Assembly (NCBI GenBank): GCA_017859955.1
Contig: JAFNAB010000037.1
Location: 1 to 41,067 of the forward strand
Origin: Holophagaceae bacterium
GTDB lineage: Bacteria; Acidobacteriota; Holophagae; Holophagales; Holophagaceae
Direction: 5' to 3'
Length of the DNA: 41,067 nt
The translations under genes and the position numbers were made by a program. Below, piece after piece: positions 14,688 to 40,833 of this stretch. The stretch's first letter is position 1, and every line of letters starts with the position of its first letter. The notes under the pieces are model-generated. The model was not told the origin of the DNA. It saw only the letters and a list, made by a program, of their open reading frames with translations, and did no database searches.

Positions 14688-14727
14688 CTTTCAAGCCCAG
14701 GTAGGCTTGGGGCTGGGGGAGGCTCTG

Positions 14728-15915
14728 GTGGATGCGCGTCAGTTACGCAGTTTCATGGCTGCAGCGAAGTTCTTAAGTTTCAGCAAGGCAGCAAAGCATC
14801 TCGGCATGACTCAGCCGACCATCAGCTATCAGGTTGCCTCCCTGGAGCGCTCCCTTGGGCTGAAGCTCTTTGTCCGGAGTACCCGGGCGGTCCACCTCAC
14901 GCCGACCGGGCTTTACTTCTTCGGCCAAGTGCAAAGATTGTCCGCCGAATTCGAGGCCATGGTGCCCCAATGCCAAGTTCCTTCTGAAGGAAGTTGTGAA
15001 GGGGGAAGCGGGCCTGGTCCGTACTTGGACGTCCGGCAGCTTCAGTGCTTCCTTGCGGTGGCATCCTCTCAAAGCTTCACCAGGGTGGGGCAGAGCAGAT
15101 GCAGGACCAGACCAGGTATTAGCTATCAGGTGGTGGCTTTGGAGAAGTCCCTTGGCAAGAGCCTTTTCCAACGTGGGCATAACTTCATCTCTCTAACAGA
15201 GGTTGGGCGAGCCTTTGCGGAACAAGTGCACGATCTGTTGACCGATTACGAGCACGTTCTCCTCCAGGCCAAGGGTATCGAGAAAGAGGAAGGGAGGGGC
15301 TTGACCATCGGATTCCTGGACGGAGTTCTGACGCAGACACTTCCGGGGCTCATTCGGGCATTCTCGATGGCCTGCCCAGGGGTGCGAGTGAAGACGATGC
15401 ATGTGTCCCTTGCCCGCATGCTGGATGCCATCCTGGCTGGGGAGATCGATTGCGGGTTCGCTCCGACTTTCGATCATGTATGTCTGGATGGTGTCCAAAG
15501 TCTAGTGGTTCTTCGAGATAGGATGGTGGCGGTCATGTCGGAAGATCACCCCTTCGCCAATCGGGAGAAACTGAGGCTTTCGCACCTTAAGGGGCAGCCC
15601 TTACTGAGTCTCGCCGAGAGTGTCGGGGGACTTGGGGTCAAGTGGCATAGGTCCCTGTGTGCAAAGTGGGGCCTGGACTCCAGCCTGACTGAATATTCGC
15701 CAGATTTCCCCTCCATGTTCATGGCCATCGGAATGGGGCAAGGGATTGCCATCCAGCCGCGGCAGATTCTCCAGGAATACGGCAATGTCCGCATTCGAGC
15801 TGTGGCGTTGGAGGATGACGATGTGGAAGTCGAGTTCGTTGTGGCTTGGAGAGCTGAGGGGAGCAATCCCCTCCTGCCTACGTTCCTGCAGGGCTTCAAT
15901 CAGATCAGTGGCTAA
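14728..15915 (+). CDS. LysR-family regulator with two tandem HTH domains
   Basis: A 395-residue transcription regulator, about 90 residues longer than a usual LysR protein (near 300). The first HTH domain spans about residues 1-72 (VDARQLRSFMAAAKF, SFSKAAKHLGMTQPTISYQV, LFVRSTRAVHLTPTG). A glycine/serine linker follows, then a second, more diverged HTH at about 99-165 (LDVRQLQCFLAVASS, SFTRVGQ, LEKSLGKSLFQRG). The remainder is a normal LysR effector domain. The GTG at 14728 is chosen because GGGGGAGG precedes it and the product then starts like a canonical LysR; the frame is open to 14635. It probably controls the codirectional VOC/dehydrogenase genes downstream. Confidence 0.85.
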   Translation: MDARQLRSFMAAAKFLSFSKAAKHLGMTQPTISYQVASLERSLGLKLFVRSTRAVHLTPTGLYFFGQVQRLSAEFEAMVPQCQVPSEGSCEGGSGPGPYLDVRQLQCFLAVASSQSFTRVGQSRCRTRPGISYQVVALEKSLGKSLFQRGHNFISLTEVGRAFAEQVHDLLTDYEHVLLQAKGIEKEEGRGLTIGFLDGVLTQTLPGLIRAFSMACPGVRVKTMHVSLARMLDAILAGEIDCGFAPTFDHVCLDGVQSLVVLRDRMVAVMSEDHPFANREKLRLSHLKGQPLLSLAESVGGLGVKWHRSLCAKWGLDSSLTEYSPDFPSMFMAIGMGQGIAIQPRQILQEYGNVRIRAVALEDDDVEVEFVVAWRAEGSNPLLPTFLQGFNQISG

Positions 15916-16334
15916 CCGTTATCGAGATAGAGCCTGTTGCCTCATTCTGCAACCCGCTTTTCATAGAAAAAACTTTCGCATGTGAATTCATTAAACATTA
16001 CACATGGGCCCACACAGCCTTTAATGAGATGTATTTAATTAATTAGAAATTTTCATCTCGCTTTACCGAGAACCTAGTCATTCCAATTTTGCGTTGGACC
16101 CTTTTGCGATGCCTTCCATACTGGATAAGTCAACCACATGACTTCTTCGAAAGAACCTACGGCAAAGGGCGTAGATATATAGGCATTTTGTATCAATTTA
16201 GACCTTGGATTTGGGGTCCAATCGCCGCATTGCATGAGCTTGATTTTTGAATACCTATTCACAGTTTAAACTGCGACGAATCTACTCGTATATATCGACA
16301 CAAAAAACACCATATAACGTTGATAGGTGAGGCT
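15916..16334 (+). promoter_or_regulatory. AT-rich intergenic region, probable promoter of the VOC operon
   Basis: This 419-bp gap is much more AT-rich than its neighbours. It contains an inverted repeat GAGATG...CATCTC (16026-16031 and 16054-16059) around an AT-rich core. The minus-strand frame at 16074-16262 has no convincing features. As the gap between a LysR gene and its likely target operon it is a good place for LysR-type sites, but none can be assigned firmly. Confidence 0.4.
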
Positions 16335-16781
16335 ATGTCAGAACTTAAAGAGAATGTAAAATTGCCAATTAGGCCACTTCACCAAGGGATCAGCGTTGCT
16401 GATATGGAGGCCTCCATCGCCTGGTACGAGAGGATGTTTGGATATCAAGTCGTTTCAGACGCCTATGTGCCCCAATTGCCAGCCCGGATCGTGTTTATGG
16501 AACTCGGCGATTGGAGCATTGAACTCTTCCATGTGGATGGATCCGCATCGCTTCCCAATGATCGGCGCATCCCCAACCTGGACATCAGGACCCACGGAAC
16601 CAAGCATGTCGCATATCTGGTGGACGATATTGTCAGCCTGATGGACGATCTGAAGGCCAAGGGGGTGGATGTGGCTATGGACATCTTTCCGATGGCTGGC
16701 GATAAAGTTGCCTTTATCCGCGACAACACCGGCAATCTGATCGAACTTATTCAGAAGCCAACCTCTGGCCAGCCTGCCTGA
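16335..16781 (+). CDS. VOC-superfamily metalloprotein (glyoxalase/dioxygenase fold)
   Basis: A 148-residue protein of the vicinal oxygen chelate superfamily. Two beta-alpha-beta-beta-beta modules are visible, with likely metal ligands H16 (LHQGIS), E63 (SIELF), H91 (KHVAYL) and E137 (LIELIQ). Family members bind a divalent metal and act as glyoxalases, epimerases, lyases or ring-cleaving dioxygenases, and the substrate cannot be read from sequence. The ATG at 16335 follows AGGTGAGG. It is the first gene of a probable three-gene unit with a medium-chain dehydrogenase and a beta-helix protein, downstream of the tandem-HTH LysR gene. Confidence 0.82.
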   Translation: MSELKENVKLPIRPLHQGISVADMEASIAWYERMFGYQVVSDAYVPQLPARIVFMELGDWSIELFHVDGSASLPNDRRIPNLDIRTHGTKHVAYLVDDIVSLMDDLKAKGVDVAMDIFPMAGDKVAFIRDNTGNLIELIQKPTSGQPA

Positions 16782-16888
16782 ACGAATTCGACGACCCAAC
16801 GTTGCATACCATTACCCGACAAATGGATATGGGTGGCTATTCGTATGCAGCACTTTTTAATCACTTTTAGGTGAAATGGAGTTTTAGC

Positions 16889-17935
16889 ATGGAAACCCAG
16901 TACGCCGTTGCCGAGCCCGGCAAAGTTGTTCTTAAGACCAAGACCCTGGCCAAGCCCGGCCCCGGTCAGGTTCTGCTCGAAGCTGAATACAGCACCATCA
17001 GCATGGGCACCGAGAACGCCCTCATGGGCAACCACATCGTGCCCCTGCCCCAGCCCATCGGCTACAGCATGGCCGCCCGGGTCATCGAAGTCGGTCCTGA
17101 TGTCACCGATCTCAAGGTGGGCGATCCCGTCGTCACCACCGGTCAGCACGCCCAGTACCTGCTGATGGATGCCAAGAACTGCACCCCTGCCCCCCACGGC
17201 ATCGACATGCAGCAGGCCGCCTTCTTCAACCTGGCTCACACCGGCATGTATGCCATCCGCCGCACCGGCATCAAGCTCGGCGAGCCCACCCTGGTCATGG
17301 GTCAGGGCCTCGTGGGCGCCATCACTGCCCAGCTGGCCCGTCTCGCTGGCGCCATGCCCCTCATCGTCACCGACCTCGACGACCGCCGTCTCGATAACGC
17401 CCGCAAGATGGGCGTGCATTACGCCATCAACCCCAAGACCCAGCCCGGCGAGCTGGAGCGGGTCATCGAGAGCATCGGCTGGGGCGGCATTCCCGTGATC
17501 TTCGAGGCCACCGGCGCCCGCAAGCCCCTGGACCAGGCCTTCGAACTGGTCTCCGAGCGCGGCCGGGTCATGATGATGTCCCAGGTCCACGGTGGCGACG
17601 CCCCCCAGTACGACACCAACCTGATGATGAAGGGCGCCACCCTCATCGGCGGCTACATCAACTCCAAGCCCTTCGCCCTGAAGCGGGCCGATCTGACCAT
17701 CAAGGGCGAGTGGCCCCCGGTCATGGGCGACAACTTGGTCCGTTACGTCAACTCCGACACCTGGACCAGCGACGAGGATATCCGGGTCATCCTGAACCTC
17801 ATCAAGTTCGGCTCGCTCAATATCACGCCCCTGATCAGCCACCGCTTCGAGTTCGAGGATATCTCCAAGGCCTACGACATGGTCTGGAACCTGGATCCCA
17901 ATCTCCTCGGTGGTGTCATTCGCTGGAAGAAGTAG
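16889..17935 (+). CDS. Medium-chain dehydrogenase/reductase lacking zinc ligands
   Basis: A 348-residue NAD(P)-dependent medium-chain dehydrogenase. The GroES-like domain is N-terminal, and the Rossmann motif GQGLVG lies at 138-143 with the cofactor-selecting acidic segment TDLDDRR (161-167). The usual catalytic-zinc cysteine is replaced (YSTISMGTE at 34-42) and the four structural-zinc cysteines are absent; the only cysteine before residue 100 is C98. This resembles the BchC-like branch rather than classical zinc alcohol dehydrogenases. Start ATG at 16889 with GGAG upstream. It lies 107 bp after the VOC gene and 62 bp before the beta-helix gene, suggesting one small catabolic or modification pathway. 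Confidence 0.85.
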   Translation: METQYAVAEPGKVVLKTKTLAKPGPGQVLLEAEYSTISMGTENALMGNHIVPLPQPIGYSMAARVIEVGPDVTDLKVGDPVVTTGQHAQYLLMDAKNCTPAPHGIDMQQAAFFNLAHTGMYAIRRTGIKLGEPTLVMGQGLVGAITAQLARLAGAMPLIVTDLDDRRLDNARKMGVHYAINPKTQPGELERVIESIGWGGIPVIFEATGARKPLDQAFELVSERGRVMMMSQVHGGDAPQYDTNLMMKGATLIGGYINSKPFALKRADLTIKGEWPPVMGDNLVRYVNSDTWTSDEDIRVILNLIKFGSLNITPLISHRFEFEDISKAYDMVWNLDPNLLGGVIRWKK

Positions 17936-17997
17936 GCAAATCAACCTAGTCGCGATCTCGAGTGACCGCTCACGAATTACAAAAAGGGATTCATACA

Positions 17998-19189
17998 ATG
18001 AGCATAATCAAGGCCAAGAACATCAGCAAGCCGTCCCGGCTGCCGTCCACGCTGTCCGTCAAGACCGAAGACATCATCATGGGTGTCAATGCCGGTCTCA
18101 ACCCGGGCAAGCCCATCATCAATGGCCCTGCACGGCAGCGGCACGGGCGTCTGCAGCCCTGCCGTCGGCCTTGCGGTCACCCAGCATGGTGACCTGACGG
18201 CCAACAACGTCGTGATCGATACCGCCGGCAAGAGCCGCTTCTGCTCGGTGGCCGAGAAATTCAGCACCCTGCGGGTCAACGACTCGGTGCTGTATGCCCA
18301 TGGCGAACCCTTTGGTGAGGGCTACGCCCCGGCCACCGGCCTCATGCAGACGCCTCCTCCCCCCCTGGAGATCGGCGGCAACTGCCGCACCCACTGCAGC
18401 ATGAGCAACTCATACACATACTTCAACCGCTGCAAGATCATCTGCGACGGCTGGGGCGCCCTGTCCACCGAGGTCGCTGAAGGCTTTGTCTACCTCGAAG
18501 CCAACGATTGTGAAGTGATCGCCACCAAGAAGGGCTACGGCGCCTATGCCGACCCCGATTGTCATGACGTCTTCAACAACTGCCGTTTCGATGTCGATGG
18601 CATGGCCGGGATCATTGCCGGTGAAGGCGACATGACCTTCAACAACTGCGTGTCGAAGTGCGCCACCTATTTTGTGCTGAGCCACAACGTCTGCGGCGTG
18701 CCGGAAGAAGTCAGCTCGCTGTTCGTCAACGGTGGTTCGATCGTCACGGGCAAGGACGTCGTCCTGGTCAAGAGCGAGAACACCCAGCTGGAATTTGATG
18801 GTGTCAAGATCGCGGCCGGCAACAAGGTCCTGGTGCGCACCATCAAGAACGACGACCCCTGCGCCACCGTGCCCAGCGCCACGCCCTACGGCGTCAACGT
18901 GGTGTTCAAGAACATGAACCTCGAAGGTGACCTGCTCCACGAGGATCCGGAACGTGCCATGTGGATTTCCATGGCTGCCGTGACCTACCTTGGCGCCATC
19001 CACAACGGCAACTTGGCCCTCGACCAGGCCAGCAAGTGGATCGCCACCGCCGATTCGACCGTGACCCTGACCGCCGACGTCTATCCGGCTCAGCTGGATG
19101 CCCTCAAGGGTGTGACCATCACCGCTTTTGGTGCCGAAGCCGGCAGCTACGACCTGCCCGGCGGCGGCAAGCTGGTAGTCAAGGCCTGA
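17998..19189 (+). pseudogene. Right-handed beta-helix protein broken by a frameshift
   Basis: The ATG at 17998 opens a frame (MSIIKAKNISKPSRL to PIING, then divergent sequence) that loses similarity at about 18133. The next frame continues as LHGSGTGVCSPAVGLAVTQ and runs to TGA at 19189. Restoring GC at GGC|CCTG (about 18123-18130), giving GGCGCCCTG, would join both into one protein of about 397 residues. The long part has repeated short strands and turns (YFNRCKIICDGWG, FNNCRFDVDG, FNNCVSKCATY) typical of a right-handed beta-helix. No signal peptide is seen, so it would be cytoplasmic. It is the last gene before a strong terminator. Confidence 0.72.
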
Positions 19190-19222
19190 GGACAGCGTTT
19201 GCCATCAGCTGTGAACCAAAGA

Positions 19223-29302: not shown

Positions 29303-29690
29303 TGCCGTCCACCTTCCCTGTCTGTCCGGGAGGCAATACGGCCTCCCACTGGGAAGAGTATAGACATTTCGAATAATTCCGAAACTACAAAACACAAGCT
29401 CGACGCTTCAATTTCTGACGATAAATATGTAAATCATATTTTTTCAACGAACTCATACAACACCCAACGGCCATCCGCTTCTTGGAACTCGTCGTTTCGG
29501 CGTTGTCAGGACGGGATGAATTTCCATCGTTCGGCCTTTGCTTTCTCGCAGGCTTGATACTTCTCGCGCCCGCGATAGGCGAGCAAGCCTGAAGCCATGA
29601 TGCAGATGGCCCGCGCCCTATGTGGCCGCCCGAAATCCTCGCTATTGCATTTCCAAGCATTTCCCTTCACAACTAAATATGGAGGAATCT
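29303..29690. other. Divergent intergenic region, 388 bp
   Basis: This region separates the ArsR-led minus operon from the plus-strand DUF134 gene and must hold both promoters. It is AT-rich around 29365-29450. Short minus-strand frames around 29440-29590 (for example GREKYQACEKAKAERWKFIPS without the first residues, and RRNDEFQEADGRWVLYEF) look like the debris of an unidentified small gene. Nothing else is recognised. Confidence 0.4.
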
Positions 29691-30005
29691 TTGGCCCGCC
29701 GTCCCTGCTGCAAACAAATCGAAGCCCTGCCCGAAGTCCGCTACTTCAAGCCCCGCGCCGTCCCTCTGGCCGAACTGGAGGAGGTTATCTTGACCATGGA
29801 AGAGCTTGAGGCCCTGCGCCTGGCTCACCTGGAGGGACTTCACCAGAAGGAGGGAGCCGAGTGCATGGCCGTTTCCAGGGCCACCTTTGGACGCGTGCTG
29901 GAAGCAGCCCATCGCAAGGTGGCCAAAGCCCTGGTTGAAGGCTGCGCCCTCCGGATCGAGGGCGGCAGCTATTCCATCAAGGGTGGAGAAACAGAGACCT
30001 GCTGA
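29691..30005 (+). CDS. DUF134-family DNA-binding protein
   Basis: A 104-residue DUF134 protein, a family with a sigma-70-region-4-like helix-turn-helix. The opening ARRPCCKQIEALPEVRYFKP, the ILTMEELEALRLAHLEG segment and the recognition helix AVSRATFGRVLEAAH (about 60-74) are typical. TTG at 29691 is preferred because GGAGG lies five bases upstream and the product then begins like the family; an ATG at 29679 is in frame. DUF134 genes often neighbour NifX-like and Mrp genes in anaerobes, as here. Confidence 0.85.
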   Translation: MARRPCCKQIEALPEVRYFKPRAVPLAELEEVILTMEELEALRLAHLEGLHQKEGAECMAVSRATFGRVLEAAHRKVAKALVEGCALRIEGGSYSIKGGETETC

Positions 30006-30011
30006 AAACGT

Positions 30012-31718
30012 TCAGCCCTTTTCCTCCTCCTTCATATCCCTTTCACAGGCCACGAATTGGGTGTGGATCCCCTTCCACAGGACGTATCGGCGATACCCCC
30101 CGGAAAGATTGCGAACCCGGAAACCGTGTTGGGCCAGGATCCGGGCTGCCACATAGCCCCGGAGGCCCACTCGGCAGAAGACCAGCAGTTCCTTGTCCCG
30201 CGGAAGCTCCCCAAGCCGGGAGCGCAGGGTGTCCACCGGCAGGCAAGTCGCCCCGGGGATGGAACCGGTGGAATATTCCAGAGGTGAGCTGACATCCATG
30301 AGGAACTGCTCCCCGGAAAGAGCCTGGAGCTCTTCCAGTTCCCACAGGTCCACATCTCCTCTCAGGACATTGGAAGCAACAAAACCGGCCATGTTGACCG
30401 CATCCTTTGCGCTGCCGAAGGGCGGAGCGTAGGTGAGTTCCAGGTCCTCCAGATCGAAGACCGTGAGTCCGGCCCGCTGGGCCACCGCGAGGACATCAAT
30501 ACGCTTGTCCACGCCCTCCACTCCTACGGCCTGGGCTCCCAGGATGCGCCCCGTTTCAGGCTCAAAGAGGAGCTTGAGGGAAATGGGGTGGGCGCCGGGA
30601 TAGTAGGTGGCGTGCTGCGGAGGATGAAGGTAGACCTTGCGGAAGGGGATCTGCTTGCGCTGGAGGGACGCTTCAGAGAGACCGGTCATGCCGAAGGCCA
30701 GATTGAAGACCTTGCAGATGGCTGTCCCCTGGGTTCCCTTGTAGCGACTGGCCCTCCCCAGAATGACCTCCGCAGCGATACGTCCCTGGCGGTTGGCTGG
30801 ACCGGCCAGAGGCAGCATGGCCGGGGCCTCGCTCGCGAAGTCCCGCACCTCCACGGCATCCCCGACCGCAAAGATGTGAGGATCGCTGGTGCGCATCTGA
30901 TCATCCACCAGAATGCCCCCCGTGGAGCCTATGGCCAGTCCGATCTCCCTGGCCAACGCAGTCTCAGGGCGTACCCCGACGCTCAGAATGGCCAGATCAC
31001 AGGCAAGGCCTTGTCCATCATCGAGGCGGGCAAAAAGGTGGTCCCCTTGATCCTCGAAGGCAGAGACGGACGTGCCAAGACGCAAGTCCACCCCCTGCCG
31101 GAGGAGTTCTTCGTGGAGAGGAAAGACCATATCGGCGTCCGCCACGCCAAGCACATGAGGCAGACGCTCCACCAGACACACCTCCATACCCCGATGGCGG
31201 AGGGATTCCGCGAGCTCCAGACCGATATATCCGGCCCCCACCACGAGGGCTCTCCCGGATCCGGCAGGGGGGACGGCAGCCAGAATGCCATCCATATCCT
31301 CCAGGTTCCGCAGAGTGAATACCCGGCGGTCATCCGCTCCGGGGAGTGGGGGACGGATGGGAGTGGCCCCAGGACTCAGGATCAAAGCGTCATAGGGCTG
31401 CCAGTAGGTCTCTCCCGTCTGAAGGTTCCTGGCCTGAACCGTCTGAGTGACCGGGTCGATGGCCAGGACTTCGGTACAGACCCGCACATCCAAAGCAAAC
31501 CGGGCCTTCAGACTCTCGGGCGTCTGCACCAGCAGGCTCTGGCGTTCAGGGATGACCCCGCCAATGTGGTAGGGAAGCCCGCAGTTGGCGAAGGAGACAT
31601 GAGGCCCCCGCTCAAAGAGGACGATCTCGGCACCTTCGGATAGGCGACGGGCCCGGGCCGCAGCGCTGGCCCCCCCTGCAACTCCCCCGATGATCACAAT
31701 GCGTGGCGATGCGGACAT
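30012..31718 (-). CDS. CoA-disulfide-reductase-like flavoprotein with C-terminal rhodanese
   Basis: A 568-residue FAD-dependent pyridine nucleotide-disulfide oxidoreductase of the CoADR-rhodanese type. The FAD motif GGVAGGASAA (11-20), the single active cysteine C46 in SFANCGLPYH, the NAD(P) motif VVGAGYIGLELAE (about 157-169) and the FAD site IFAVGDAVE are present. The last 100 residues form a rhodanese domain with active loop VFCRVGLRG. Family members reduce CoA disulfide, persulfides or polysulfide. It fits the sulfur/thiol theme of the region. It converges with the DUF134 gene (6-bp gap). Confidence 0.9.
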   Translation of the reverse strand: MSASPRIVIIGGVAGGASAAARARRLSEGAEIVLFERGPHVSFANCGLPYHIGGVIPERQSLLVQTPESLKARFALDVRVCTEVLAIDPVTQTVQARNLQTGETYWQPYDALILSPGATPIRPPLPGADDRRVFTLRNLEDMDGILAAVPPAGSGRALVVGAGYIGLELAESLRHRGMEVCLVERLPHVLGVADADMVFPLHEELLRQGVDLRLGTSVSAFEDQGDHLFARLDDGQGLACDLAILSVGVRPETALAREIGLAIGSTGGILVDDQMRTSDPHIFAVGDAVEVRDFASEAPAMLPLAGPANRQGRIAAEVILGRASRYKGTQGTAICKVFNLAFGMTGLSEASLQRKQIPFRKVYLHPPQHATYYPGAHPISLKLLFEPETGRILGAQAVGVEGVDKRIDVLAVAQRAGLTVFDLEDLELTYAPPFGSAKDAVNMAGFVASNVLRGDVDLWELEELQALSGEQFLMDVSSPLEYSTGSIPGATCLPVDTLRSRLGELPRDKELLVFCRVGLRGYVAARILAQHGFRVRNLSGGYRRYVLWKGIHTQFVACERDMKEEEKG

Positions 31719-31869
31719 GGCAGCCTCATTTGAAAGAACTGGCCATCAGACTATTCCGGAATAATTATATCCGCAACCAGAAACACGAAAAATCATCTTG
31801 ACCATTATGAGCATCCGCTCAATACTTCATTCGAGCACTTGCTCACTACTTTAGCCCAAGGATGCAACC

Positions 31870-32235
31870 ATGCCCAAGATCGCCGTCACCAGTGAAGGAC
31901 CGAGCCTCCAGGACGCCGTGGACCCGCGCTTCGGCCGGGCGGGGGGGTTTGTGGTCGTGGATACGGAAAGCATGGCCACTACTTACGTAGACAACGGCGC
32001 TTCCCAGGTCATGGCCCAGGGTGCAGGGATCCAGGCAGCTGAAAACATTGTCAATGCAGGAGCCGAAATCCTGCTGACGGGCTTCGTCGGACCCAAGGCC
32101 TTCGCGGCCCTCCAGGCAGCCGGGGTCAAGGTGGGACAGAACCTGGAGAACCTCTCCGTCGGCGAGGCCATCGAGCGCTTCAAGTCCGGAACAGTGACCT
32201 TCGCGGAAGCCCCCAACCGTGAGAGCCACTCATGA
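31870..32235 (+). CDS. NifX-like (dinitrogenase cofactor biosynthesis domain) protein
   Basis: A 121-residue protein with the NifX/NafY/NifB C-terminal fold, which binds iron-sulfur or molybdenum-iron cluster precursors. Seen are IAVTSEGPSLQDAVDPRFGR at the start, AAENIVNAGAEILLTGFVGPKAF in the middle and KVGQNLENLSVGEAI near the end. It is the first gene of a tight operon with two ferredoxin-Mrp ATPases (ATGA overlap), so cluster trafficking is the likely role. Confidence 0.87.
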   Translation: MPKIAVTSEGPSLQDAVDPRFGRAGGFVVVDTESMATTYVDNGASQVMAQGAGIQAAENIVNAGAEILLTGFVGPKAFAALQAAGVKVGQNLENLSVGEAIERFKSGTVTFAEAPNRESHS

Positions 32236-33101
32236 TCGTTGCCATTGCCAGCGGAAAGGGAGGAACCGGGAAGACCACCGTGTCCGCCTCCCTCACGGCC
32301 ATCTGGGAGCGCCCCGTGGTAGCTGTGGATCTGGATGTGGAGGAGCCCAATCTCCACCTCTTCCTGAAGCCAGAGCTCATCTCCACGGAGACCGTCAACC
32401 TGGAGGTTCCGGTGCTGGAGCCTTCAGCCTGCACCCTCTGCCGGGCCTGCTCGGAGCTCTGCCAGTTCAAGGCCCTGGCCATCTTCGGCAAGACCCTCAT
32501 GGTCATGCCCGAGATGTGCCACGGCTGCGGCGGTTGTTTCGAAGTCTGCCCCGCGGAGGCCCTCAAACGGGGGAACCGGGAACTGGGAGTCATGGAGATC
32601 GGCCACAGCCGGGGCCAGATCCCCTGTCTCACGGGTCGCCTTCGCGTAGGTGAGTCCATGAGTCCGCCCCTCATGCGCCACATCCGCCACCGGATGGCCG
32701 AAATGGCCAAGGACATGAATGCCGACCTCATCATCGACGCCCCCCCCGGAGTGAGCTGCCCGGCCATGAACGCTGTGCAGGACAGCGATGTCATCCTCCT
32801 GGTCACCGAACCCACCCCCTTCGGATTCCACGACTTCCAGTTGGCCTGGCAGGCCTTCGCGCCCCTGGGCAAACCCATGGGAGTCGTGGTCAACCGGGCG
32901 GGACTCGGGGATGACCGGGCCTACGCATTCTGCGAAGCCAAGGGCCTGCCAATCCTGGCGGAGATCCCCTATCGGCGGGAGATCGCCGAGCACTACGCCA
33001 AGGGAGGACTCCTGGCGGAAATGGACAGCGAAATGCGCTGGCGATTCGCCAGCCTCCAGGAAGGCCTGGACCGCCTGAACCGGGGAGTTTCCCATGCGTG
33101 A
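32232..33101 (+). CDS. Mrp/MinD-type ATPase with ferredoxin insert (1)
   Basis: A 289-residue P-loop ATPase with deviant Walker A GKGGTGKTT (8-16) and a two-[4Fe-4S] ferredoxin insert, CTLCRACSELC then CHGCGGCFEVC (about 63-107). The later IIDAPPGVSCP segment is the conserved Walker B region. Such proteins carry or insert Fe-S clusters in an ATP-dependent way. Start overlaps the NifX-like gene stop (ATGA), and the end overlaps the second paralogue by 8 bp. It would act as a pair with that paralogue, possibly as a heterodimer. Confidence 0.9.
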   Translation: MIVAIASGKGGTGKTTVSASLTAIWERPVVAVDLDVEEPNLHLFLKPELISTETVNLEVPVLEPSACTLCRACSELCQFKALAIFGKTLMVMPEMCHGCGGCFEVCPAEALKRGNRELGVMEIGHSRGQIPCLTGRLRVGESMSPPLMRHIRHRMAEMAKDMNADLIIDAPPGVSCPAMNAVQDSDVILLVTEPTPFGFHDFQLAWQAFAPLGKPMGVVVNRAGLGDDRAYAFCEAKGLPILAEIPYRREIAEHYAKGGLLAEMDSEMRWRFASLQEGLDRLNRGVSHA

Positions 33102-33969
33102 GATCGTCGTCATCAGCGGCAAGGGGGGCACCGGCAAGACCTCCCTCACGGCAGCCTTCGCCCATCTGGCGCAGGACAAGATTCTTTGCGATCTGGACGT
33201 GGACGCCCCCGATCTGCACATCCTCCTGGAGCCCCAGACCCGACGTCAGGGAGCCTTCCTCTCGGGCAACGAGGCCATCATCGACCCGGGGCTCTGCCAG
33301 GCCTGCGGGCTTTGCGCGGAAAAGTGCCGCTTCGGTGCCATCCAGGCCGTCGAAGGAAGCTTCCGCGTGAACGCCTCCCGGTGTGAGGGCTGCAAGGTCT
33401 GCGTGGCCCTTTGCCCTCACCAGGCCATCGACTTCCAGGATCGCCTCTGCGGCACCTGGTACCAGAGTGAGACCCGCTTCGGTCCCATGGTCCACGCCCA
33501 GCTCTTCCCCGGCCAGGAGAACTCCGGCCGCCTGGTCTCCCTCCTGAAGCAGCAGGCCCGGGAACTCGCCCAGCAGAAGGGCATCGACCTGATCCTCAGC
33601 GATGGAACACCCGGAATCGGATGTCCGGTGATCGCCTCACTCTCCCAGGCCACCCTGGCCTTGATCGTCACGGAACCGACCCCTTCGGGCCTCCACGACC
33701 TGAAGCGGATCGCGGACCTCTGCGAGCACTTCCGCATCCGAACGGCTGTGCTCATCAACAAGTGGGACCTGAACCTGGACCATACAGAGGCCATCGAAAC
33801 CCTCTGCGCGGAAAAGGGCTATGTCCCGGTGGGCCGCCTTCCCCATGACATCCAGGTGGCCCAGGCCATGGTGCAGCGCAAGGCTGTGACGGAGCTGGAG
33901 GAGAACCCCTTCAACCTCCAGGTGCGCCAGATCTGGAAAACCATAGAATCCCTGCTTCCCAATAACTGA
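33094..33969 (+). CDS. Mrp/MinD-type ATPase with ferredoxin insert (2)
   Basis: A 291-residue paralogue of the preceding gene with the same layout. Deviant Walker A is GKGGTGKTS (8-16), and the ferredoxin insert is CQACGLCAEKC then CEGCKVCVALC (about 68-110). The Walker B region is ILSDGTPGIGCPV. All eight cluster cysteines are present. The 8-bp overlap with the preceding gene implies balanced synthesis of the two. Fe-S cluster delivery is inferred from family and neighbours. Confidence 0.9.
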   Translation: MREIVVISGKGGTGKTSLTAAFAHLAQDKILCDLDVDAPDLHILLEPQTRRQGAFLSGNEAIIDPGLCQACGLCAEKCRFGAIQAVEGSFRVNASRCEGCKVCVALCPHQAIDFQDRLCGTWYQSETRFGPMVHAQLFPGQENSGRLVSLLKQQARELAQQKGIDLILSDGTPGIGCPVIASLSQATLALIVTEPTPSGLHDLKRIADLCEHFRIRTAVLINKWDLNLDHTEAIETLCAEKGYVPVGRLPHDIQVAQAMVQRKAVTELEENPFNLQVRQIWKTIESLLPNN

Positions 33970-33984
33970 CCCAAGGAGAACGCC

Positions 33985-34368
33985 ATGAACAGCAAGACAC
34001 GCATCGCCATCCCCTCCGCCATGCCCGGCGGGCTCGAAGCTGAACTCGGCCAGCACTTCGGCCACTGTGATCTCTACACCATCGTGGATGTGGAGGGCGG
34101 GAAGGTCTGCCAGGTGAGCACCCTCCCCAACGTTCCCCACCAGCAGGGGGGCTGCATGGCCCCCGTCAACCACCTCGCGCAGAACGGCGTCAACGCCCTG
34201 ATCGCCGGTGGCATGGGTTTCCGCCCCCTCATGGGCTTCAACCAGGTGGGCATCGAGGTCTACCACGGCGCCACGGCAGAAAACGTGGATTCCGCCGTAA
34301 AGGCCTGGCTCCTGGGCGCCCTGCCCCGCTTCACCCGCGATCAGACCTGCGGCGGCGGGCAGCACTGA
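33985..34368 (+). CDS. Second NifX-like cofactor-binding protein
   Basis: A 127-residue NifX/NifB-C-terminal-like protein (LGQHFGHCDLYTIVDVEGG, then GVNALIAGGMGFRPLMGF). Compared with the first NifX-like gene it has extra histidines and cysteines (HQQGGCMAP, CGGGQH at the end), which may bind metal. It follows the second Mrp ATPase by 15 bp with AAGGAG upstream. It belongs to the same operon. Confidence 0.87.
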   Translation: MNSKTRIAIPSAMPGGLEAELGQHFGHCDLYTIVDVEGGKVCQVSTLPNVPHQQGGCMAPVNHLAQNGVNALIAGGMGFRPLMGFNQVGIEVYHGATAENVDSAVKAWLLGALPRFTRDQTCGGGQH

Positions 34369-34369
34369 G

Positions 34370-34729
34370 ATGCGCATTGCCATCATTACTCAGCGAAAGG
34401 ACTCCCTCGCCGCATTCTCGGCGGGACTGGCAGCCCAGGGGGCGCAGACCGACTGGCTCTCCACCCCCAAGCAGGCCATCGACCAGGCCCGCATCTACCC
34501 ACGCAACATGGTCATCCTCGATGATCAGACCGGGGATTTCCGAGCCATCCTCTCGGATCTGATGGAGGCCAACGCCCTGCTCCACACTGCTGTGATCACG
34601 CCCATGGATGCGGAGAGCTTCCACGAAGCGAGCGAGGGCCTGGGCGTCCTGAGTTCCCTGCCCCCCTCGCCCAATGCGGAACATGCCCATTACCTGATGG
34701 ACAAGCTCAAAGAAGTCCTAGGGGGCTGA
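34370..34729 (+). CDS. Receiver-like hypothetical protein
   Basis: A 119-residue protein with an alpha/beta layout like a CheY receiver (RIAIITQRKDSLAAFSAGL, then NMVILDDQTGDFRAIL with aspartates where the phospho-acceptor lies, near residue 46). The N-terminal acidic pair and the conserved lysine of active receivers are not obvious, so it may be a pseudo-receiver. It starts 1 bp after the NifX-like gene and ends 1 bp before the thioesterase gene, hence operonic. Function unknown. Confidence 0.6.
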   Translation: MRIAIITQRKDSLAAFSAGLAAQGAQTDWLSTPKQAIDQARIYPRNMVILDDQTGDFRAILSDLMEANALLHTAVITPMDAESFHEASEGLGVLSSLPPSPNAEHAHYLMDKLKEVLGG

Positions 34730-34730
34730 T

Positions 34731-35237
34731 ATGGAGGGGGAGGCGGTTCAAGGAACCCTTGAGAGCACCCGGTCCCGGCTGCACGAGCACTGTATCGTGT
34801 GTTGGGACCGGCACCCCTTCGGGCTCAAGGTGGCCTACCATGCCGTAAATCAACACACGGTGGAAGGAAGCTTCCCCTGCGGCAAGTCGTACGAGGGTTA
34901 CGGAGGCGTCATTCATGGCGGGATCGTTTCCAGCCTCCTGGATGGCGCTATGGCCAACTGCATTTTGGCAAAAGGACTTGAGGCCTACACCGTGGACCTC
35001 CGCCTTCGCTTCCGGGGTGCGGTCCGGGCAGGGGTCGATGCCCTTATCCGAGGGGAATGGCTCCGCAACGAGGGGCCCCTCCATCTCCTCCAAGCCTCGC
35101 TCTCCCAGGAGGGAAAGATCCTGGTGACCGCACGGGCCAAGTTCTTCGTCGGAAACCCCACGGGAACCCCCCGCCCCCTACCCATGGGAGAGGCTGCCCG
35201 GGAGCTCATCCGGGAATCCCGGAAGCGGCTCCGCTGA
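34731..35237 (+). CDS. PaaI-type hotdog thioesterase
   Basis: A 168-residue hotdog-fold acyl-CoA thioesterase-like protein. The conserved GGVIHGGIVSSLLDGAM (about 58-74), containing the HGG motif, and the later strand YTVDLRLRFRGAVRAG are typical of the PaaI group. An N-terminal HCIVCW motif with two cysteines is noticeable. It lies 1 bp after the receiver-like gene. Substrate is unknown. Confidence 0.83.
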   Translation: MEGEAVQGTLESTRSRLHEHCIVCWDRHPFGLKVAYHAVNQHTVEGSFPCGKSYEGYGGVIHGGIVSSLLDGAMANCILAKGLEAYTVDLRLRFRGAVRAGVDALIRGEWLRNEGPLHLLQASLSQEGKILVTARAKFFVGNPTGTPRPLPMGEAARELIRESRKRLR

Positions 35238-35257
35238 GCCAGAAAGGACGCTCCGTC

Positions 35258-36199
35258 ATGCCATCCTCGCCCCTGGAACTGTTCGTCACGAACCTCGAAG
35301 AGGGGTACGGCGCCACCAGCCTGGGCAGCGTGGGGGGGGCTTTCAGCACCATCCTGCTGGCCCTCCTCGTCCCAGGAGATCATGTCATCGCAAGCACTTC
35401 AGCACCCCTCTCCCAGCCCAGGCTCACGGAGCACCTCCGAACCCGCTTCGGTGTTGAAATAGAAGAGGTGGACACCTCAGACATGGGTGCACTGCGAACC
35501 GCCATGAAGCCCACGACTCGCCTGTTGTGGGTGGAAACACCATCCCGCCATGGGCTCAAGGTCACCAACCTTGCGGCGGCCAGCCAGATCGCCCGCAGCA
35601 ACCGCGCTCTGCTGGCTGTGGACTCCAGCTTGGCAGGGCCCCATGTCCAGGCGCCATTGAGCCTGGGGGCCCATCTTGTCCTGCACCCCCTCAGCCGCCT
35701 GCTGGGGGACAAGAGAGCCAAAGGGGCGATGGTGGTGACCAGACAGGGGGCGCTCCACAAAAGAATCCGGGAGATGAGCCGCGTCCTGGGGAACCGCCTT
35801 AAGCCCGAACGGCTACCAATGCTGCCTCAAGGCATATCGACCCTGGCCTTGCGCACGGAACGCTCCCAGGAAAACGCCAAGGATGTTGCAGAATGGCTGG
35901 CAAGCCATCCTCAAGTAGCCTGGGTACACCATATCGGCCTGGAAACCCACCCGCACCACGAATTGGCCCGGCACCAGATGCGCGGCCCCGGCCCAGGCAT
36001 CGCCTTCGAGCTGAGGGCCGGGAAGAAGGCCGCGCTGGAGCTCCTGCCCCGGATTCCCAGCTTCGAAGCCTGGGCCGACGCCTTCGGCATCCTCCACCTC
36101 ACGGTCGGCTTCGAAGACATCCAGGACCTCATGGAAGAACTGGACGAAGGCCTCAAGCGCGTCAAACGTTCCACCCCCCGTGCATTGGGAGACGAATGA
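35258..36199 (+). CDS. Cys/Met-metabolism PLP-fold protein lacking the PLP lysine
   Basis: A 313-residue relative of cystathionine gamma-synthase/lyase enzymes. The PLP-binding aspartate region is kept (VDSSLAGPHVQAPLSLGAHL, 121-140), but the segment that normally reads HSATKYLGGH is HPLSRLLGDK, placing R147 at the Schiff-base lysine position. The N-terminal 60-70 residues of the family are also missing. It therefore should not do normal PLP chemistry and may be regulatory or degenerate. ATG at 35258 with AAAGGA upstream; the longer frame to 35057 overlaps the thioesterase. The stop overlaps the biotin synthase start in ATGA. Confidence 0.8.
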   Translation: MPSSPLELFVTNLEEGYGATSLGSVGGAFSTILLALLVPGDHVIASTSAPLSQPRLTEHLRTRFGVEIEEVDTSDMGALRTAMKPTTRLLWVETPSRHGLKVTNLAAASQIARSNRALLAVDSSLAGPHVQAPLSLGAHLVLHPLSRLLGDKRAKGAMVVTRQGALHKRIREMSRVLGNRLKPERLPMLPQGISTLALRTERSQENAKDVAEWLASHPQVAWVHHIGLETHPHHELARHQMRGPGPGIAFELRAGKKAALELLPRIPSFEAWADAFGILHLTVGFEDIQDLMEELDEGLKRVKRSTPRALGDE

Positions 36200-37146
36200 A
36201 ACAGTGCCCCACCCCCCAGGCCATCCGGGCCATCCATGACCAGCCCTTCCCAGAACTGGTGCGCCAGGCGATGGCAAGCCACCGGCAGCACTGGAACCCC
36301 CTGGAAGTCCAGCTCTGCGTCCTGGATGCCCTGAAGACCGGGGACTGCTCCGAGGACTGCGCCTACTGCGCCCAGAGCGCCCACCACACCACCACACTCA
36401 AGGCGGATCCTCTCAAGGATCGAGACAAGGTGCTGGAGGGGGCCCGGCGCGCCCTGGAAAGCGGCGCCACCCGCTATTGCATGGCCACCTCGGGACGTGG
36501 CATCCAGGAGGGCCCGGACTTTGACCGGGTCCTGGAGATTGTGCAGTCCGTGAGCGACCTGGGCCTGGAGCCCTGCGTCAGCCTGGGGCTCATCCATGAA
36601 GGACAGGCCCGGCGCCTCAAGGCTGCCGGGTGCGCGATCTACAACCACAACCTGGATTCCAGCCGACTGGTCTACCAGCGGATCGTCTCCACCCACACCT
36701 TCGATGAGCGCCTTGAAACCATCCGGGCCGTGCGGGAGGCAGGTCTCCAGGTCTGCTGCGGCGGGATCCTGGGCCTGGGGGAGAGCCTGGAGGACCGGAT
36801 CCACTTCCTCCATGAACTGGCCAGCCTGGACCCCATTCCGGACGCCATCCCTTTCAATATCCTGGTGCCCATCCCCGGCACCCCCCTGGAAGGGATGCCG
36901 CCGCTGCCTCCCCTGGAGGCGATACGGGTCATCGCCACCGCCCGGATTCTCTTCCCCACCAGCCGGATCCGCCTGGCGGCGGGCCGCACCAGCCTCAGCC
37001 CGGAAGCCCAGGCCCTCGCCTTCCTCTGTGGCGCCAATTCCATCTTCTCCGGCGAGAAGCTGCTGACCACGCCGGGGAGCGAGGCTGATTCCGATCAAGT
37101 CCTGCTGAGAAACCTGGGGATGCACCCAGAAGGAGGCAAGTCTTGA
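36196..37146 (+). CDS. bioB: Biotin synthase
   Basis: A 316-residue radical-SAM enzyme that inserts sulfur into dethiobiotin. The [4Fe-4S] motif is CSEDCAYC. The [2Fe-2S] ligands have counterparts in RYCMATSG, EPCVSLG, QVCCGGILGLGE and the arginine of IRLAAGRTSL. The YNHNLDSS motif is present. All catalytic residues look intact and length is normal. It overlaps the preceding PLP-fold gene by four bases and the ZIP gene by four. No other biotin genes are in the window. Sulfur enzymes nearby could supply its cluster. Confidence 0.93.
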   Translation: MKQCPTPQAIRAIHDQPFPELVRQAMASHRQHWNPLEVQLCVLDALKTGDCSEDCAYCAQSAHHTTTLKADPLKDRDKVLEGARRALESGATRYCMATSGRGIQEGPDFDRVLEIVQSVSDLGLEPCVSLGLIHEGQARRLKAAGCAIYNHNLDSSRLVYQRIVSTHTFDERLETIRAVREAGLQVCCGGILGLGESLEDRIHFLHELASLDPIPDAIPFNILVPIPGTPLEGMPPLPPLEAIRVIATARILFPTSRIRLAAGRTSLSPEAQALAFLCGANSIFSGEKLLTTPGSEADSDQVLLRNLGMHPEGGKS

Positions 37147-37871
37147 TCGCGAACACCCTGATCGCAGCCCTTTGTGTGGGCCCAGGCAGCGTCTTCCTGG
37201 CCAGCCAAGTCTTCAGACTGCCTGAGGAGACCCTCCGGAAGCTCACCCCCAGGATCCTCAGCTTTGCCGTTGGGGCCCTCCTGGCCATGGCCCTCCTGCG
37301 CATGCTCCCCCACGCCCTTGCGCAGGGGGCCCCGATGCCCGTCCTGAAAACAGCCCTGGCGGCCATCCTCCTGCTCTTTCTCCTGGAACGTTTCCATATC
37401 CTGCGCCACTGCCACGAATTCCAATGCCCCGAACATGCGGACATGCCCATGCGCCTCTTCATGGGCAATGCCTCCCATGCCCTGGTGGATGGCATCGCCT
37501 TGGCGCTGGCCTTCCAGGGGGGAAGCCTGCCAGGTTGGGTGTTTGCGTTCGCCCTCATGGGGCACGAAATCCCCAAGGCCCTGGTGAGCCTGGTACTCCT
37601 GAAGGAAGGACGGGATATCGCCGTAGCCATGATCTGGAACCTCATTCCGAGCCTCTTCACGGTGGTCGGAGCCCTGGCGACCGCCCTCAGCATCACCTTC
37701 ATGAAGCCCCTCACCCCCTATGCACTGGGCGCGGGAGCGGCCTTCTTCCTCTATCTCGCCCTTGCTGATCTCGTCCCCAGGCACCGCAGGGCTCCCAGCG
37801 GGACAGAATCCATTTGGCAAACAGCCCTCGTCCTGGCTGGCGTGGGCGTCATTCTCCTGATCCCTCACTAG
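37143..37871 (+). CDS. ZIP-family metal transporter
   Basis: A 242-residue membrane protein with about eight hydrophobic segments. The ZIP metal-site motifs are seen in helix 4 (HALVDGIALALAF, about 113-125) and helix 5 (LMGHEIPKAL, about 139-148). A histidine/cysteine-rich loop (HILRHCHEFQCPEH) between helices 3 and 4 could bind metal. It starts at TTG, overlapping the bioB stop in TTGA, with GGAGG upstream. It would import zinc or iron for the metal-cofactor genes of this operon. Confidence 0.87.
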   Translation: MIANTLIAALCVGPGSVFLASQVFRLPEETLRKLTPRILSFAVGALLAMALLRMLPHALAQGAPMPVLKTALAAILLLFLLERFHILRHCHEFQCPEHADMPMRLFMGNASHALVDGIALALAFQGGSLPGWVFAFALMGHEIPKALVSLVLLKEGRDIAVAMIWNLIPSLFTVVGALATALSITFMKPLTPYALGAGAAFFLYLALADLVPRHRRAPSGTESIWQTALVLAGVGVILLIPH

Positions 37872-38092
37872 GGGGAAGTCCGGTCCAACCACTAACCCAT
37901 TGCGAGGATGTTCTCGCCCACCCCGGGAGAAAGACATGCCAAGACGAGACGGAACCGGCCTCATGGGGCAGGGATGCACGAGGGGACGAGGTGGCGACAT
38001 AGGTCCCGGGTGCTGTCAGGGACGCTGGTCCAGGGCCTTCGGCTGGCTCCGGCGCCTGGGGAATCAACGCTGACAACTAAAAGGGGAGTGAG
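37872..38092 (+). other. Intergenic region before the CGGC gene
   Basis: A 221-bp GC-rich gap. A hairpin with stem CCAGG.GCC/GGC.CCTGG lies at 38030-38059, shortly before the ribosome site at 38086. It might be a leader structure or a weak terminator without T-run. I recognise no known riboswitch. Confidence 0.35.
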
Positions 38093-38533
38093 ATGAAGAT
38101 CGGCATCATCATCTGTGGACGCTACCAGGACTGCGGCGGCGGCAAGTGCTTCAAGGCCCTGCGGGAACGCCTGGGCAGCTTTGCCCGTTACCCCAAGGAG
38201 GAACCTCTGGAGGTCGTCGGGTATTCAACCTGCGGAGGCTGTCCTGGGGGCAATGTGGAATACCTCCCGGCCGAATTCCAGAAGAACGGATGCCAAGCCG
38301 TCCACCTCGCCACGGGGCTGGTCGTGGGCTACCCCCCTTGTCCCAATATCCGGAACTTCAAGAGTTTCATTGAAGGGCACTATGGCCTTCCGGTCGTGGT
38401 GGGCACCCATCCCATTCCCCTGAAATACATGGAGACCCATCGCCAGCTTCCCTTCTGGAAAGAGGCGCGGATGCAGGAACTCGCCAACGAACTCCTGTCC
38501 GATGCTCCAGAGGTCATGGAGTCCTACAACTGA
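38093..38533 (+). CDS. CGGC-domain protein
   Basis: A 146-residue CGGC-domain protein, a cysteine-rich family of unknown but probably metal-binding role in anaerobes. The defining STCGGCPGGN motif is at about 46-55. Other cysteines are in IICGRYQDCGGGKCF near the start, NGCQAV and YPPCPNI. The ATG at 38093 follows GGGGAG. It stands between the metal-cofactor operon and thrS. A second, broken CGGC-like remnant is found at 40850-40991. Confidence 0.85.
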   Translation: MKIGIIICGRYQDCGGGKCFKALRERLGSFARYPKEEPLEVVGYSTCGGCPGGNVEYLPAEFQKNGCQAVHLATGLVVGYPPCPNIRNFKSFIEGHYGLPVVVGTHPIPLKYMETHRQLPFWKEARMQELANELLSDAPEVMESYN

Positions 38534-38583
38534 ACCCCTCCCGCCCCCTCCACCAGCGCGGAACATTGACTTTCGAGGACTCC

Positions 38584-40497
38584 ATGCCGATTTCCATCCA
38601 ACTCCCAGATGACTCCGTACGCCAGCTCCCAGATGGGGCGACGGGCATGGATCTGGCAACCTCCATCAGTCCCAGGCTCCTGGATGCAGCCCTGGCGACA
38701 CAGGTGGACGGCCAACTAAAGGACCTCACCCATCCCTTGCCTGAGGGTGCCCAGGTGGCCATTCTCACGGCCAAGAATCCCGAAACCCTGGACCTCATCA
38801 GACACTCCACGGCCCACCTCCTGGCCCAGGCCGTGAAGCGCCTCTTCCCCACAGCCAAGGTGGGCATCGGCCCGGTCATCGAGGACGGTTTCTATTACGA
38901 CTTCCTGGTGGAGACATTCTTCACCCCGGAGGACCTGGCGTCCATCGAGTCTGAGATGAAGCGGCTGGCCGATGCGGACATGCCTGTCTCCCGGGAGGAA
39001 GTGGACCGGGCAGCCGCCATTGAGCGATTCACGGCCCTGGGTGAGCCCCTCAAAGTGGAACTGGCAGGAGCCATCCCGGAGGGAGAACCCCTCGCCCTCT
39101 ATCGCCAGGGGGATTTCCTGGATCTCTGCCGCGGCCCCCATGTGCCCAACACCGGCAAGCTCAAGGCCTTCAAGCTGACCCACACCGCCGCCGCCTACTG
39201 GAAGGGGAGCGAGAAGAACGCCCAGCTCTGCCGCATCTATGGCACGGCCTTCCATACCCAGAAGGACCTCGACGAGCACCTCGCCCGTCGGGAGGAAGCC
39301 AGAGCCCGTGACCACCGAAAGCTGGGCCGGGAGCTGGACCTTTTCTCCTTCCACCCGGAAGCCCCTGCCTCCCCCTTCTTCCACCCCAAGGGCACGGTGG
39401 TCTACAACGGGCTGCTGGATTACCTCCGGAGTCTCTATCGCCGCCGGGGGTACCAGGAGCTGATCACACCCCAGGCCCTGGATGTGAGTCTATGGAAGAC
39501 CTCGGGGCACTACGACAAGTATCAGGAAAGCATGTATTTCACCGAGGTGGACGAGCGGGAGTATGCGCTGAAGCCCATGAACTGCCCCACCCACTGCCTC
39601 ATCTACGGCACCGACAAGCACAGCTACCGGGACCTCCCCATCCGCTATGCGGACTTCGGCCGAATCCACCGCTACGAGCGCAGTGGGGTCACCCAGGGCC
39701 TCACCCGGGTGCGCACCTTCTGCCAGGACGACGGCCATATCATCTGCACACCGGAACAGATGAAGCCTGAGATGGCGGCATTCTTCACCTTCCTGCGGGA
39801 GGTCTACGCCACCTTCGGATTCGAGGATGTCCAGGTGGCCCTTTCCACCCGCCCCGAGCAGCGCCTGGGTAGCGACGAGGTCTGGGATCAGGCCGAGGGA
39901 GCCCTCGCAGATGCTCTTCAGGAAGCGGGCGTGGCCTACCACATCAATCCCGGGGAGGGCGCCTTCTACGGCCCCAAGATCGAGTTCCAGGTGCTGGATG
40001 CCCTGCGCCGCCCATGGCAGCTCGGCACGGTCCAGGTGGACTACTCCATGCCCGCCCGCTTTGGTCTCACCTACATCAAGCCCGACGGCAGCGAAGGCAC
40101 CCCGGTGATGCTGCACCGGGCCATCCTCGGGAGCCTGGAGCGATTCATCGGCATCCTTATCGAGCACTGTGCCGGCGCCTTCCCCCCATGGCTCGCCCCC
40201 GTCCAGATCGCGATCCTGCCCATCACAGACCGGGCCCACGACTATGCCCGGCAGATCCACTCCCGGGCCCTGGACCTGGACATCCGAGCCGAGCTGGATC
40301 TGAGGAACGAGAAGGTCAACGCCAAGATCCGGGATGCTCAGCTCCAGAAGATTCCCTACATGCTCGTACTGGGGGATCGGGAGGCGGCCGATGGCACCGT
40401 CTCGGTGCGCCACCGCCGGGACGGCAACCTGGGCACCCAGGCCCTGGAGGCCTTCCTGGAAAACGTGCAGCAGCAGATCCACAAACGTGAACGCTAG
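38584..40497 (+). CDS. thrS: Threonyl-tRNA synthetase
   Basis: A 637-residue class II synthetase charging tRNA-Thr. It has an N-terminal TGS domain (1-62), then an editing domain with HSTAHLLAQ and DLCRGPHVPNTG. The catalytic core follows with class II motifs and zinc ligands in LKPMNCPTHC, and an anticodon-binding domain makes up the last 100 residues. All motifs are intact. The ATG at 38584 has GAGG five bases upstream; the frame is open to a TTG at 38566. Confidence 0.97.
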   Translation: MPISIQLPDDSVRQLPDGATGMDLATSISPRLLDAALATQVDGQLKDLTHPLPEGAQVAILTAKNPETLDLIRHSTAHLLAQAVKRLFPTAKVGIGPVIEDGFYYDFLVETFFTPEDLASIESEMKRLADADMPVSREEVDRAAAIERFTALGEPLKVELAGAIPEGEPLALYRQGDFLDLCRGPHVPNTGKLKAFKLTHTAAAYWKGSEKNAQLCRIYGTAFHTQKDLDEHLARREEARARDHRKLGRELDLFSFHPEAPASPFFHPKGTVVYNGLLDYLRSLYRRRGYQELITPQALDVSLWKTSGHYDKYQESMYFTEVDEREYALKPMNCPTHCLIYGTDKHSYRDLPIRYADFGRIHRYERSGVTQGLTRVRTFCQDDGHIICTPEQMKPEMAAFFTFLREVYATFGFEDVQVALSTRPEQRLGSDEVWDQAEGALADALQEAGVAYHINPGEGAFYGPKIEFQVLDALRRPWQLGTVQVDYSMPARFGLTYIKPDGSEGTPVMLHRAILGSLERFIGILIEHCAGAFPPWLAPVQIAILPITDRAHDYARQIHSRALDLDIRAELDLRNEKVNAKIRDAQLQKIPYMLVLGDREAADGTVSVRHRRDGNLGTQALEAFLENVQQQIHKRER

Positions 40498-40506
40498 AGG
40501 AGTCCC

Positions 40507-40833
40507 ATGGAAATCCAGCAAGCCCTGAACCACTACGCCGGCAAATCCGGTCTGCGCCTCAACTGCGCTCAGTCCGTTGCCGCAGCCTTCGGAGAAGATC
40601 CTCAGGCTTTCGCGTCATGCGGGAGCGGACGCGCGCCCGAGGGCTGGTGCGGTGCCGCCTATGCCGCAGCCCACCTCACCGGGAACCCGGAAGCCATCCG
40701 GGGAGCCTTCCACGAGCGGGCCGGGGCTGTCACCTGCCAGGCCATCCGCCGGAACCGTCAACTCCCCTGCCCGGGCTGCGTCGAGACCGCCGCCCGCCTT
40801 ACAAAAGAGCTCAAAAACGGGTGCGAGGCCTAG
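40507..40833 (+). CDS. C_GCAxxG_C_C-type putative redox protein
   Basis: A 108-residue cysteine-rich protein of the C_GCAxxG_C_C family (putative redox-active). The expected pattern is seen as LNCAQSV, WCGAAYA, VTCQAI and PCPGCVE, with an additional SCGSG. Family members occur in anaerobes near redox or metal genes; activity is not established. GAGGAG precedes the ATG at 40507. It lies 9 bp after thrS. Confidence 0.83.
   Translation: MEIQQALNHYAGKSGLRLNCAQSVAAAFGEDPQAFASCGSGRAPEGWCGAAYAAAHLTGNPEAIRGAFHERAGAVTCQAIRRNRQLPCPGCVETAARLTKELKNGCEA

What the first reader, a model, noticed from the sequence alone, without database searches (positions are those of the whole stretch)
35258..36199. Cys/Met PLP-fold protein with arginine in place of the Schiff-base lysine
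Alignment of VD..L..P..Q.PL.LGA...H....(K)..LG places R147 at the catalytic lysine, and the N-terminal arm is missing. Yet the reading frame is intact and tightly coupled to bioB, suggesting a retained non-enzymatic role.
Basis: partly seen in the sequence, partly recalled or inferred. Interest (0 to 1): 0.6.

Follow-up and report, generated by a model that had tools for sequence, protein, structure and literature searches.

The report
Dead methionine gamma-lyase kept by selection
A gene that once encoded a sulfur-amino-acid-cutting enzyme has lost nearly every part needed to hold its vitamin B6 cofactor, yet two diverged copies survive intact beside a biotin synthase gene, so the protein very probably does a non-catalytic job; what that job is remains unknown.

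Summary
ORF 35258-36199 (313 aa) is a Cys/Met-metabolism protein closest to methionine gamma-lyase (MGL), and R147 sits at the Schiff-base lysine. The N-terminal arm, Y114, N161, S208, the S340 segment and R375 are gone or replaced; of the main contacts only the cofactor-ring Asp is kept.

A second copy lies on another contig of the same assembly (64% aa identity), with His at the lysine site, the same truncations and the same thioesterase/bioB neighbours. Between the copies dS is about 1.06 and dN/dS 0.26 (0.18-0.35). About 25 nonsense changes would be expected under neutrality; none is seen. The old active site drifts while the C-terminal half is conserved. Relatives carry a full-length, Lys-containing MGL next to the same thioesterase; two others have thioesterase-bioB with nothing between.

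Best reading: a retained, probably cofactor-free MGL pseudoenzyme, most likely acting through protein contacts in an Fe-S/ORP-like gene cluster with a second bioB. Selection is shown; the mode of action is inferred. It was seen in one assembly only, among 77 family and 396 phylum genomes.

The parts
35258..36199 (+). Lys-less, truncated methionine gamma-lyase homologue (pMGL), 313 aa
   Evidence: AF2 pLDDT 88, Foldseek to MGL 2.6e-33, TM 0.88 by query length
35696..35698 (+). R147 codon CGC at the Schiff-base lysine position (K211 of P. putida MGL); CAC His in the second copy
35405..35407 (+). P50 at the position of stacking Tyr114 (Arg in the second copy)
35621..35623 (+). D122, the kept cofactor-ring contact (Asp186)
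36095..36097 (+). H280 in place of the substrate-carboxylate Arg375; about 45 residues with Ser340 deleted just upstream
35924..35977 (+). His-rich stretch VHH..LETHPHHE..RHQ (residues 223-240), conserved in both copies, partly new relative to active MGLs
34731..35237 (+). Hotdog thioesterase, upstream neighbour; next to active MGL in relatives
36196..37146 (+). bioB2, second biotin synthase with canonical motifs; start overlaps pMGL stop (ATGA)
34370..34729 (+). 119-aa protein of unknown family in the same cluster
33985..34368 (+). NifX/ORP-like protein (dinitrogenase iron-molybdenum cofactor family)
33094..33969 (+). MinD/Mrp-like P-loop ATPase with 4Fe-4S domains
32232..33101 (+). MinD/Mrp-like P-loop ATPase with 4Fe-4S domains
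31870..32235 (+). NifX/ORP-like protein (dinitrogenase iron-molybdenum cofactor family)

Best explanation
The ORF encodes a pseudoenzyme. A methionine gamma-lyase gene that followed the thioesterase gene lost its N-terminal arm, the Ser340 segment, the Schiff-base lysine and nearly all cofactor and substrate contacts, then was duplicated or diverged as part of a larger cluster and kept under purifying selection. It probably does not form an aldimine or bind PLP in the usual way. Shown: the residue losses, the shared truncations, the selection signal, the intact frames. Inferred: that it works by protein-protein contact through its retained C-terminal half, as a docking or stabilising subunit for cluster partners such as BioB2, the thioesterase or the Fe-S/NifX-MinD proteins. 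Probability that it is a selected, non-catalytic protein: about 0.85. Probability of the docking mode: about 0.4.
For: MGL contacts for phosphate, ring stacking, Schiff base and substrate carboxylate are invariant or nearly so in 33 homologues and replaced here except Asp186 and the Ser88 position (residue roles from PMC9865163 and PMC9307983). The second copy shares both truncations and the neighbours. dN/dS 0.26, CI 0.18-0.35, pN below pS in every 60-codon window. About 25 nonsense hits expected under neutrality, none seen. Former active-site positions differ between the copies (V/T25, G/Q26, P/R50, R/H97, S/A146, R/H147), while residues 161-180, 201-260 and 281-300 are 70-85% identical. A confident compact fold is predicted. 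The codons CGC and CAC differ by one base, so the Lys codon was most simply lost before the copies split.
Against: No partner or phenotype is shown. The pseudoenzyme is found in one assembly only, and close relatives do without it, so it is dispensable at genus level. Its dN/dS is at the high end of its neighbours (mostly 0.05-0.27). Whether the second copy is in the same cell or comes from a sister species is not settled.
Confidence: 0.65

Rival explanations
1. Decaying pseudogene whose frame is still open by chance or because bioB translation needs it.
For: Long stem branch with many radical losses; dN/dS to active MGLs about 0.3-0.55; gene absent in G001 and G023.
Against: Amino-acid-level constraint between two copies at dS about 1; about 25 expected stops, none seen. 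Coupling alone does not conserve protein sequence, and G001 joins thioesterase and bioB directly with its own ATGA overlap.
Confidence: 0.1
2. Non-catalytic subunit of a hetero-oligomer with another PLP enzyme of the genome, like regulatory pseudo-subunits of PLP enzymes.
For: The fold is retained; the genome keeps four canonical Cys/Met enzymes; pseudoenzyme activators derived from PLP enzymes are known (TSB-like, PMC12727527).
Against: No active MGL orthologue of the closest clade was found in this genome (best canonical paralogue 36%), and the inter-subunit N-terminal arm is missing.
Confidence: 0.12
3. Neofunctionalised metal-binding or cluster-assembly protein using the conserved His-rich stretch at residues 223-240.
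For: Y->H225, Q->H233 and R->H239 are new relative to active MGLs and identical in both copies; neighbours are NifX-like, 4Fe-4S ATPase, ZIP and CGGC proteins.
Against: Geometry of the His residues was not examined; identity of two related copies is weak evidence; several of the His are ancestral.
Confidence: 0.1
4. Still a PLP or PMP enzyme using Arg or His as base, as in lysine-less PMP dehydratases such as ColD (from memory).
For: Asp186 kept; the second copy has His.
Against: Phosphate-binding loop, Ser208, Tyr59/Arg61, Tyr114 and Arg375 all lost; pocket residues differ between copies.
Confidence: 0.03

Closest known systems
Methionine gamma-lyase (TIGR01328 / PRK07503; P. putida 1gc0, F. 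nucleatum 7bqw)
   Same: Sequence family, fold of the large domain and part of the small domain, Asp186, gene slot beside the thioesterase in relatives
   Different: No Schiff-base lysine, no N-terminal arm, no Ser340 segment, no Tyr114, Asn161 or Arg375; scores 157-188 bits against equivalog cut-offs of 550-666
Pseudoenzymes derived from PLP enzymes, e.g. plant TSB-like (PMC12727527); SPTLC1 and antizyme inhibitor from memory
   Same: A PLP-enzyme paralogue that lost essential residues and is retained
   Different: TSB-like differs from its parent at two key residues and has a known partner; here the whole site is dismantled, a different fold family is involved, and no partner is known
Desulfovibrio ORP / MrpORP Fe-S cluster system (PMC6345978)
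   Same: Neighbouring genes: P-loop ATPases, 4Fe-4S and dinitrogenase-cofactor (NifX/ORP) domains
   Different: No Cys/Met homologue, thioesterase or bioB is mentioned in the passages read; only domain-level resemblance was tested

Membership tests
Methionine gamma-lyase (active enzyme) | Schiff-base lysine (K211) | tested here: not met
   R147 in the window copy, His in the second copy, K in 33 of 33 others
Methionine gamma-lyase (active enzyme) | N-terminal arm with Tyr59/Arg61 binding the partner's PLP phosphate | tested here: not met
   ORF begins at MGL residue 65; the same start in both copies
Methionine gamma-lyase (active enzyme) | Stacking Tyr114, Asn161, Ser208, Ser340, Arg375 | tested here: not met
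   P/R, R/H, P/P, deleted, H/H in window/second copy
Methionine gamma-lyase (active enzyme) | Score above the MGL equivalog cut-off | tested here: not met
   157.1 bits vs 549.7 (TIGR01328), 188.4 vs 666 (NF005695)
Cys/Met metabolism PLP superfamily by descent (PF01053) | Above Pfam gathering score and same fold | tested here: met
   192.7 bits vs 27; Foldseek probability 1.00, TM 0.88 by query
Pseudoenzyme under selection | Catalytic residues lost, sequence conserved at dN/dS below 1 | tested here: met
Pseudoenzyme under selection | Demonstrated lack of activity and a demonstrated non-catalytic role | not testable with these tools
   needs purified protein or a knockout
Biotin synthase (neighbour bioB2) | CxxxCxxC, YNHNLD and RLAAGR motifs; equivalog score | tested here: met
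   366.9 bits vs cut-off 225; motifs aligned with the housekeeping copy

The most novel reading that the evidence does not exclude
The dead lyase has become a structural or metal-binding component of an Fe-S/NifX-MinD assembly that serves a second biotin synthase: a former sulfide- or thiol-releasing enzyme in that cluster replaced by a scaffold, with new function placed in the His-rich C-terminal face.
Probability: 0.12. Interest if true: 0.65.

Novelty: new variant of a known kind. Interest (0 to 1): 0.42.

Why it matters
Pseudoenzymes from PLP enzymes are known, but here the whole cofactor site, not one residue, is dismantled in a Cys/Met-family protein that stays under purifying selection, and closely related genomes show the same slot with an active enzyme, with the dead one, or empty. 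That makes the step from enzyme to non-enzyme directly testable in one operon, and it points to an unexplored association of thioesterase, MGL and a second biotin synthase with ORP-like Fe-S genes.

Tried and rejected
Lys-less relatives elsewhere: none in 77 family and 396 phylum genomes (scores fall from 642 to 267 bits), and a pattern scan of genome contigs gave two distant homologues only (the scan is pattern-limited). G013's 630-aa match looked like an active-site insertion but is a run of N in a scaffold; G028's 494-aa match is an MGL N-terminus joined to an O-acetylhomoserine-sulfhydrylase-type body, probably a misassembly; neither is degenerate. A replacement lysine in the loop after R147 (K152, K155) is not conserved in the second copy. 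Tetranucleotide composition did not decide whether contig C220 belongs to the same organism. Paper searches for a Lys-less MGL pseudoenzyme found none. PF02113 was a wrong guess and uninformative.

Full report
Observation. The ORF at 35258-36199 translates to 313 aa without interruption. Pfam PF01053 matches at 9.5e-57, but only over profile positions 57-315 of 381. The best solved relatives are methionine gamma-lyases, 1e-48. Against P. putida MGL (1gc0) the alignment runs without gaps with an offset of 64, so R147 faces K211. In an alignment with 33 Lys-type homologues, the positions of G89, Y114, N161, D186, S208, T210, K211 and R375 are invariant in those 33; the window protein has V, P, R, D, P, S, R and H. 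Roles of several of these residues are taken from papers: phosphate contacts Gly/Met/Ser/Thr, Tyr114, Ser340 and Arg375 (PMC9865163); Tyr58*/Arg60* and Ser339 in the C. freundii numbering (PMC9307983). The roles of Asp186 and Asn161 rest on general knowledge of the family. The Tyr/Arg arm lies before the first residue of this ORF, and the Ser340 segment is inside a deletion of about 45 residues.

A second copy. The same assembly holds a second such gene on contig C220. It is 64% identical, begins and ends at the same alignment positions, lacks the same segments, has His at the lysine site, and lies between the same thioesterase and bioB genes with the same ATGA overlap. The Arg codon CGC and the His codon CAC differ by one base, so loss of the Lys codon most simply predates the split (inference). 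The whole cluster from the CoA-disulfide-reductase-like gene to thrS is present on both contigs at 79-88% nucleotide identity, and further blocks match too. rpoB is single in the assembly and a third, more distant thrS lies on the rpoB contig, which makes an in-genome duplication of an accessory cluster plausible; a contig from a sister species is not excluded. Both readings leave two diverged lineages of the gene.

Selection. Between the copies NG86 gives dN 0.274, dS 1.06, ratio 0.26, bootstrap 0.18-0.35; pN is below pS in every 60-codon window. 2.6% of single-base changes in this ORF make a stop, so about 25 would be expected at this divergence without selection; there is none. dS near 1 and the high GC make the exact values rough, but a ratio near 1 is excluded. 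Most neighbours have ratios of 0.05-0.27, with a higher value only for the short NifX2 gene, whose dS is unusually low. Conservation is uneven: most positions of the old active site differ between the copies, while residues 161-180, 201-260 and 281-300 are 70-85% identical. Against active MGLs the ratio is about 0.3-0.55, and the tree has a long stem before the two copies, attached near the thioesterase-linked MGLs rather than the cystathionine gamma-synthases (long-branch caution applies).

Origin. In relatives G006, G007, G015 and G032, and in G013 across a scaffold gap, a full-length Lys-type MGL follows the thioesterase. In G029 an active MGL precedes the bioB2 gene. In G001 (same genus) and G023 thioesterase and bioB2 are adjacent with nothing between. 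So the slot is found with an active, a dead or no MGL. No other Lys-less member of this clade turned up in 77 family and 396 phylum genomes: scores fall from 642 to 267 bits.

Neighbours. The bioB here is a second copy with canonical motifs; a housekeeping-type bioB, found across most of the family, lies elsewhere at 61% identity. The BioB2 type was seen only in G000 (two copies), G001, G023 and G029. The rest of the cluster has NifX-like proteins and P-loop ATPases with 4Fe-4S domains, resembling at domain level the Desulfovibrio ORP/MrpORP system, where such a protein transfers Fe-S clusters in vitro (PMC6345978).

Structure. AlphaFold2 with ten sequences gives pLDDT 88, pTM 0.87, and Foldseek finds MGL structures first (2.6e-33, TM 0.88 by query length). 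The other alignment rows are full-length homologues, so the model may lean towards their fold.

Mechanism. Shown: loss of the site, selection, drift of the pocket, shared truncations. Inferred: no PLP chemistry; function through protein contacts of the C-terminal half, most likely with cluster partners. The ancestral enzyme could have supplied sulfide or a thiol to the Fe-S/BioB2 system; this is a hypothesis with no direct test here. Rivals: decay (unlikely on the dN/dS), a pseudo-subunit of another PLP enzyme (no close active MGL in the genome), a metal-binding neofunction (His-rich stretch, geometry untested), a Lys-free enzyme (pocket gone).

Verdict. It is a new variant of a known kind, pseudoenzymes of PLP folds, confined as far as seen to one assembly.

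Noticed in passing
window 29645-40814 and 14679-19190; L051 and L087 (contig C220): Most of the cluster and a LysR-ADH block are duplicated on another contig at 79-88% nt identity; NifX2 alone has dS 0.20 against 0.5-1.2 for the other genes, as if homogenised by gene conversion.
   Followed up: partly
window 38566-40497: Second threonyl-tRNA synthetase in the cluster (three in the assembly with the C220 copy); the housekeeping-like one is 77% identical on the rpoB contig.
   Followed up: partly
window 36196-37146: Second biotin synthase of a separate type (74-82% among G000, G001, G023, G029) linked to the thioesterase and, where visible, the NifX/MinD genes.
   Followed up: partly
window 14635-15915: LysR-type regulator with two HTH_1 domains in tandem before one substrate domain; a similar one is on C220.
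   Followed up: no
window 34370-34729: 119-aa cluster protein with no Pfam or NCBIfam match; relatives found in G000 (two copies), G001 and, at 45% identity, G023.
   Followed up: no
window 9011-12682: Long minus-strand ORF with a weak TrwC relaxase match, suggesting a mobile element left of the cluster.
   Followed up: no
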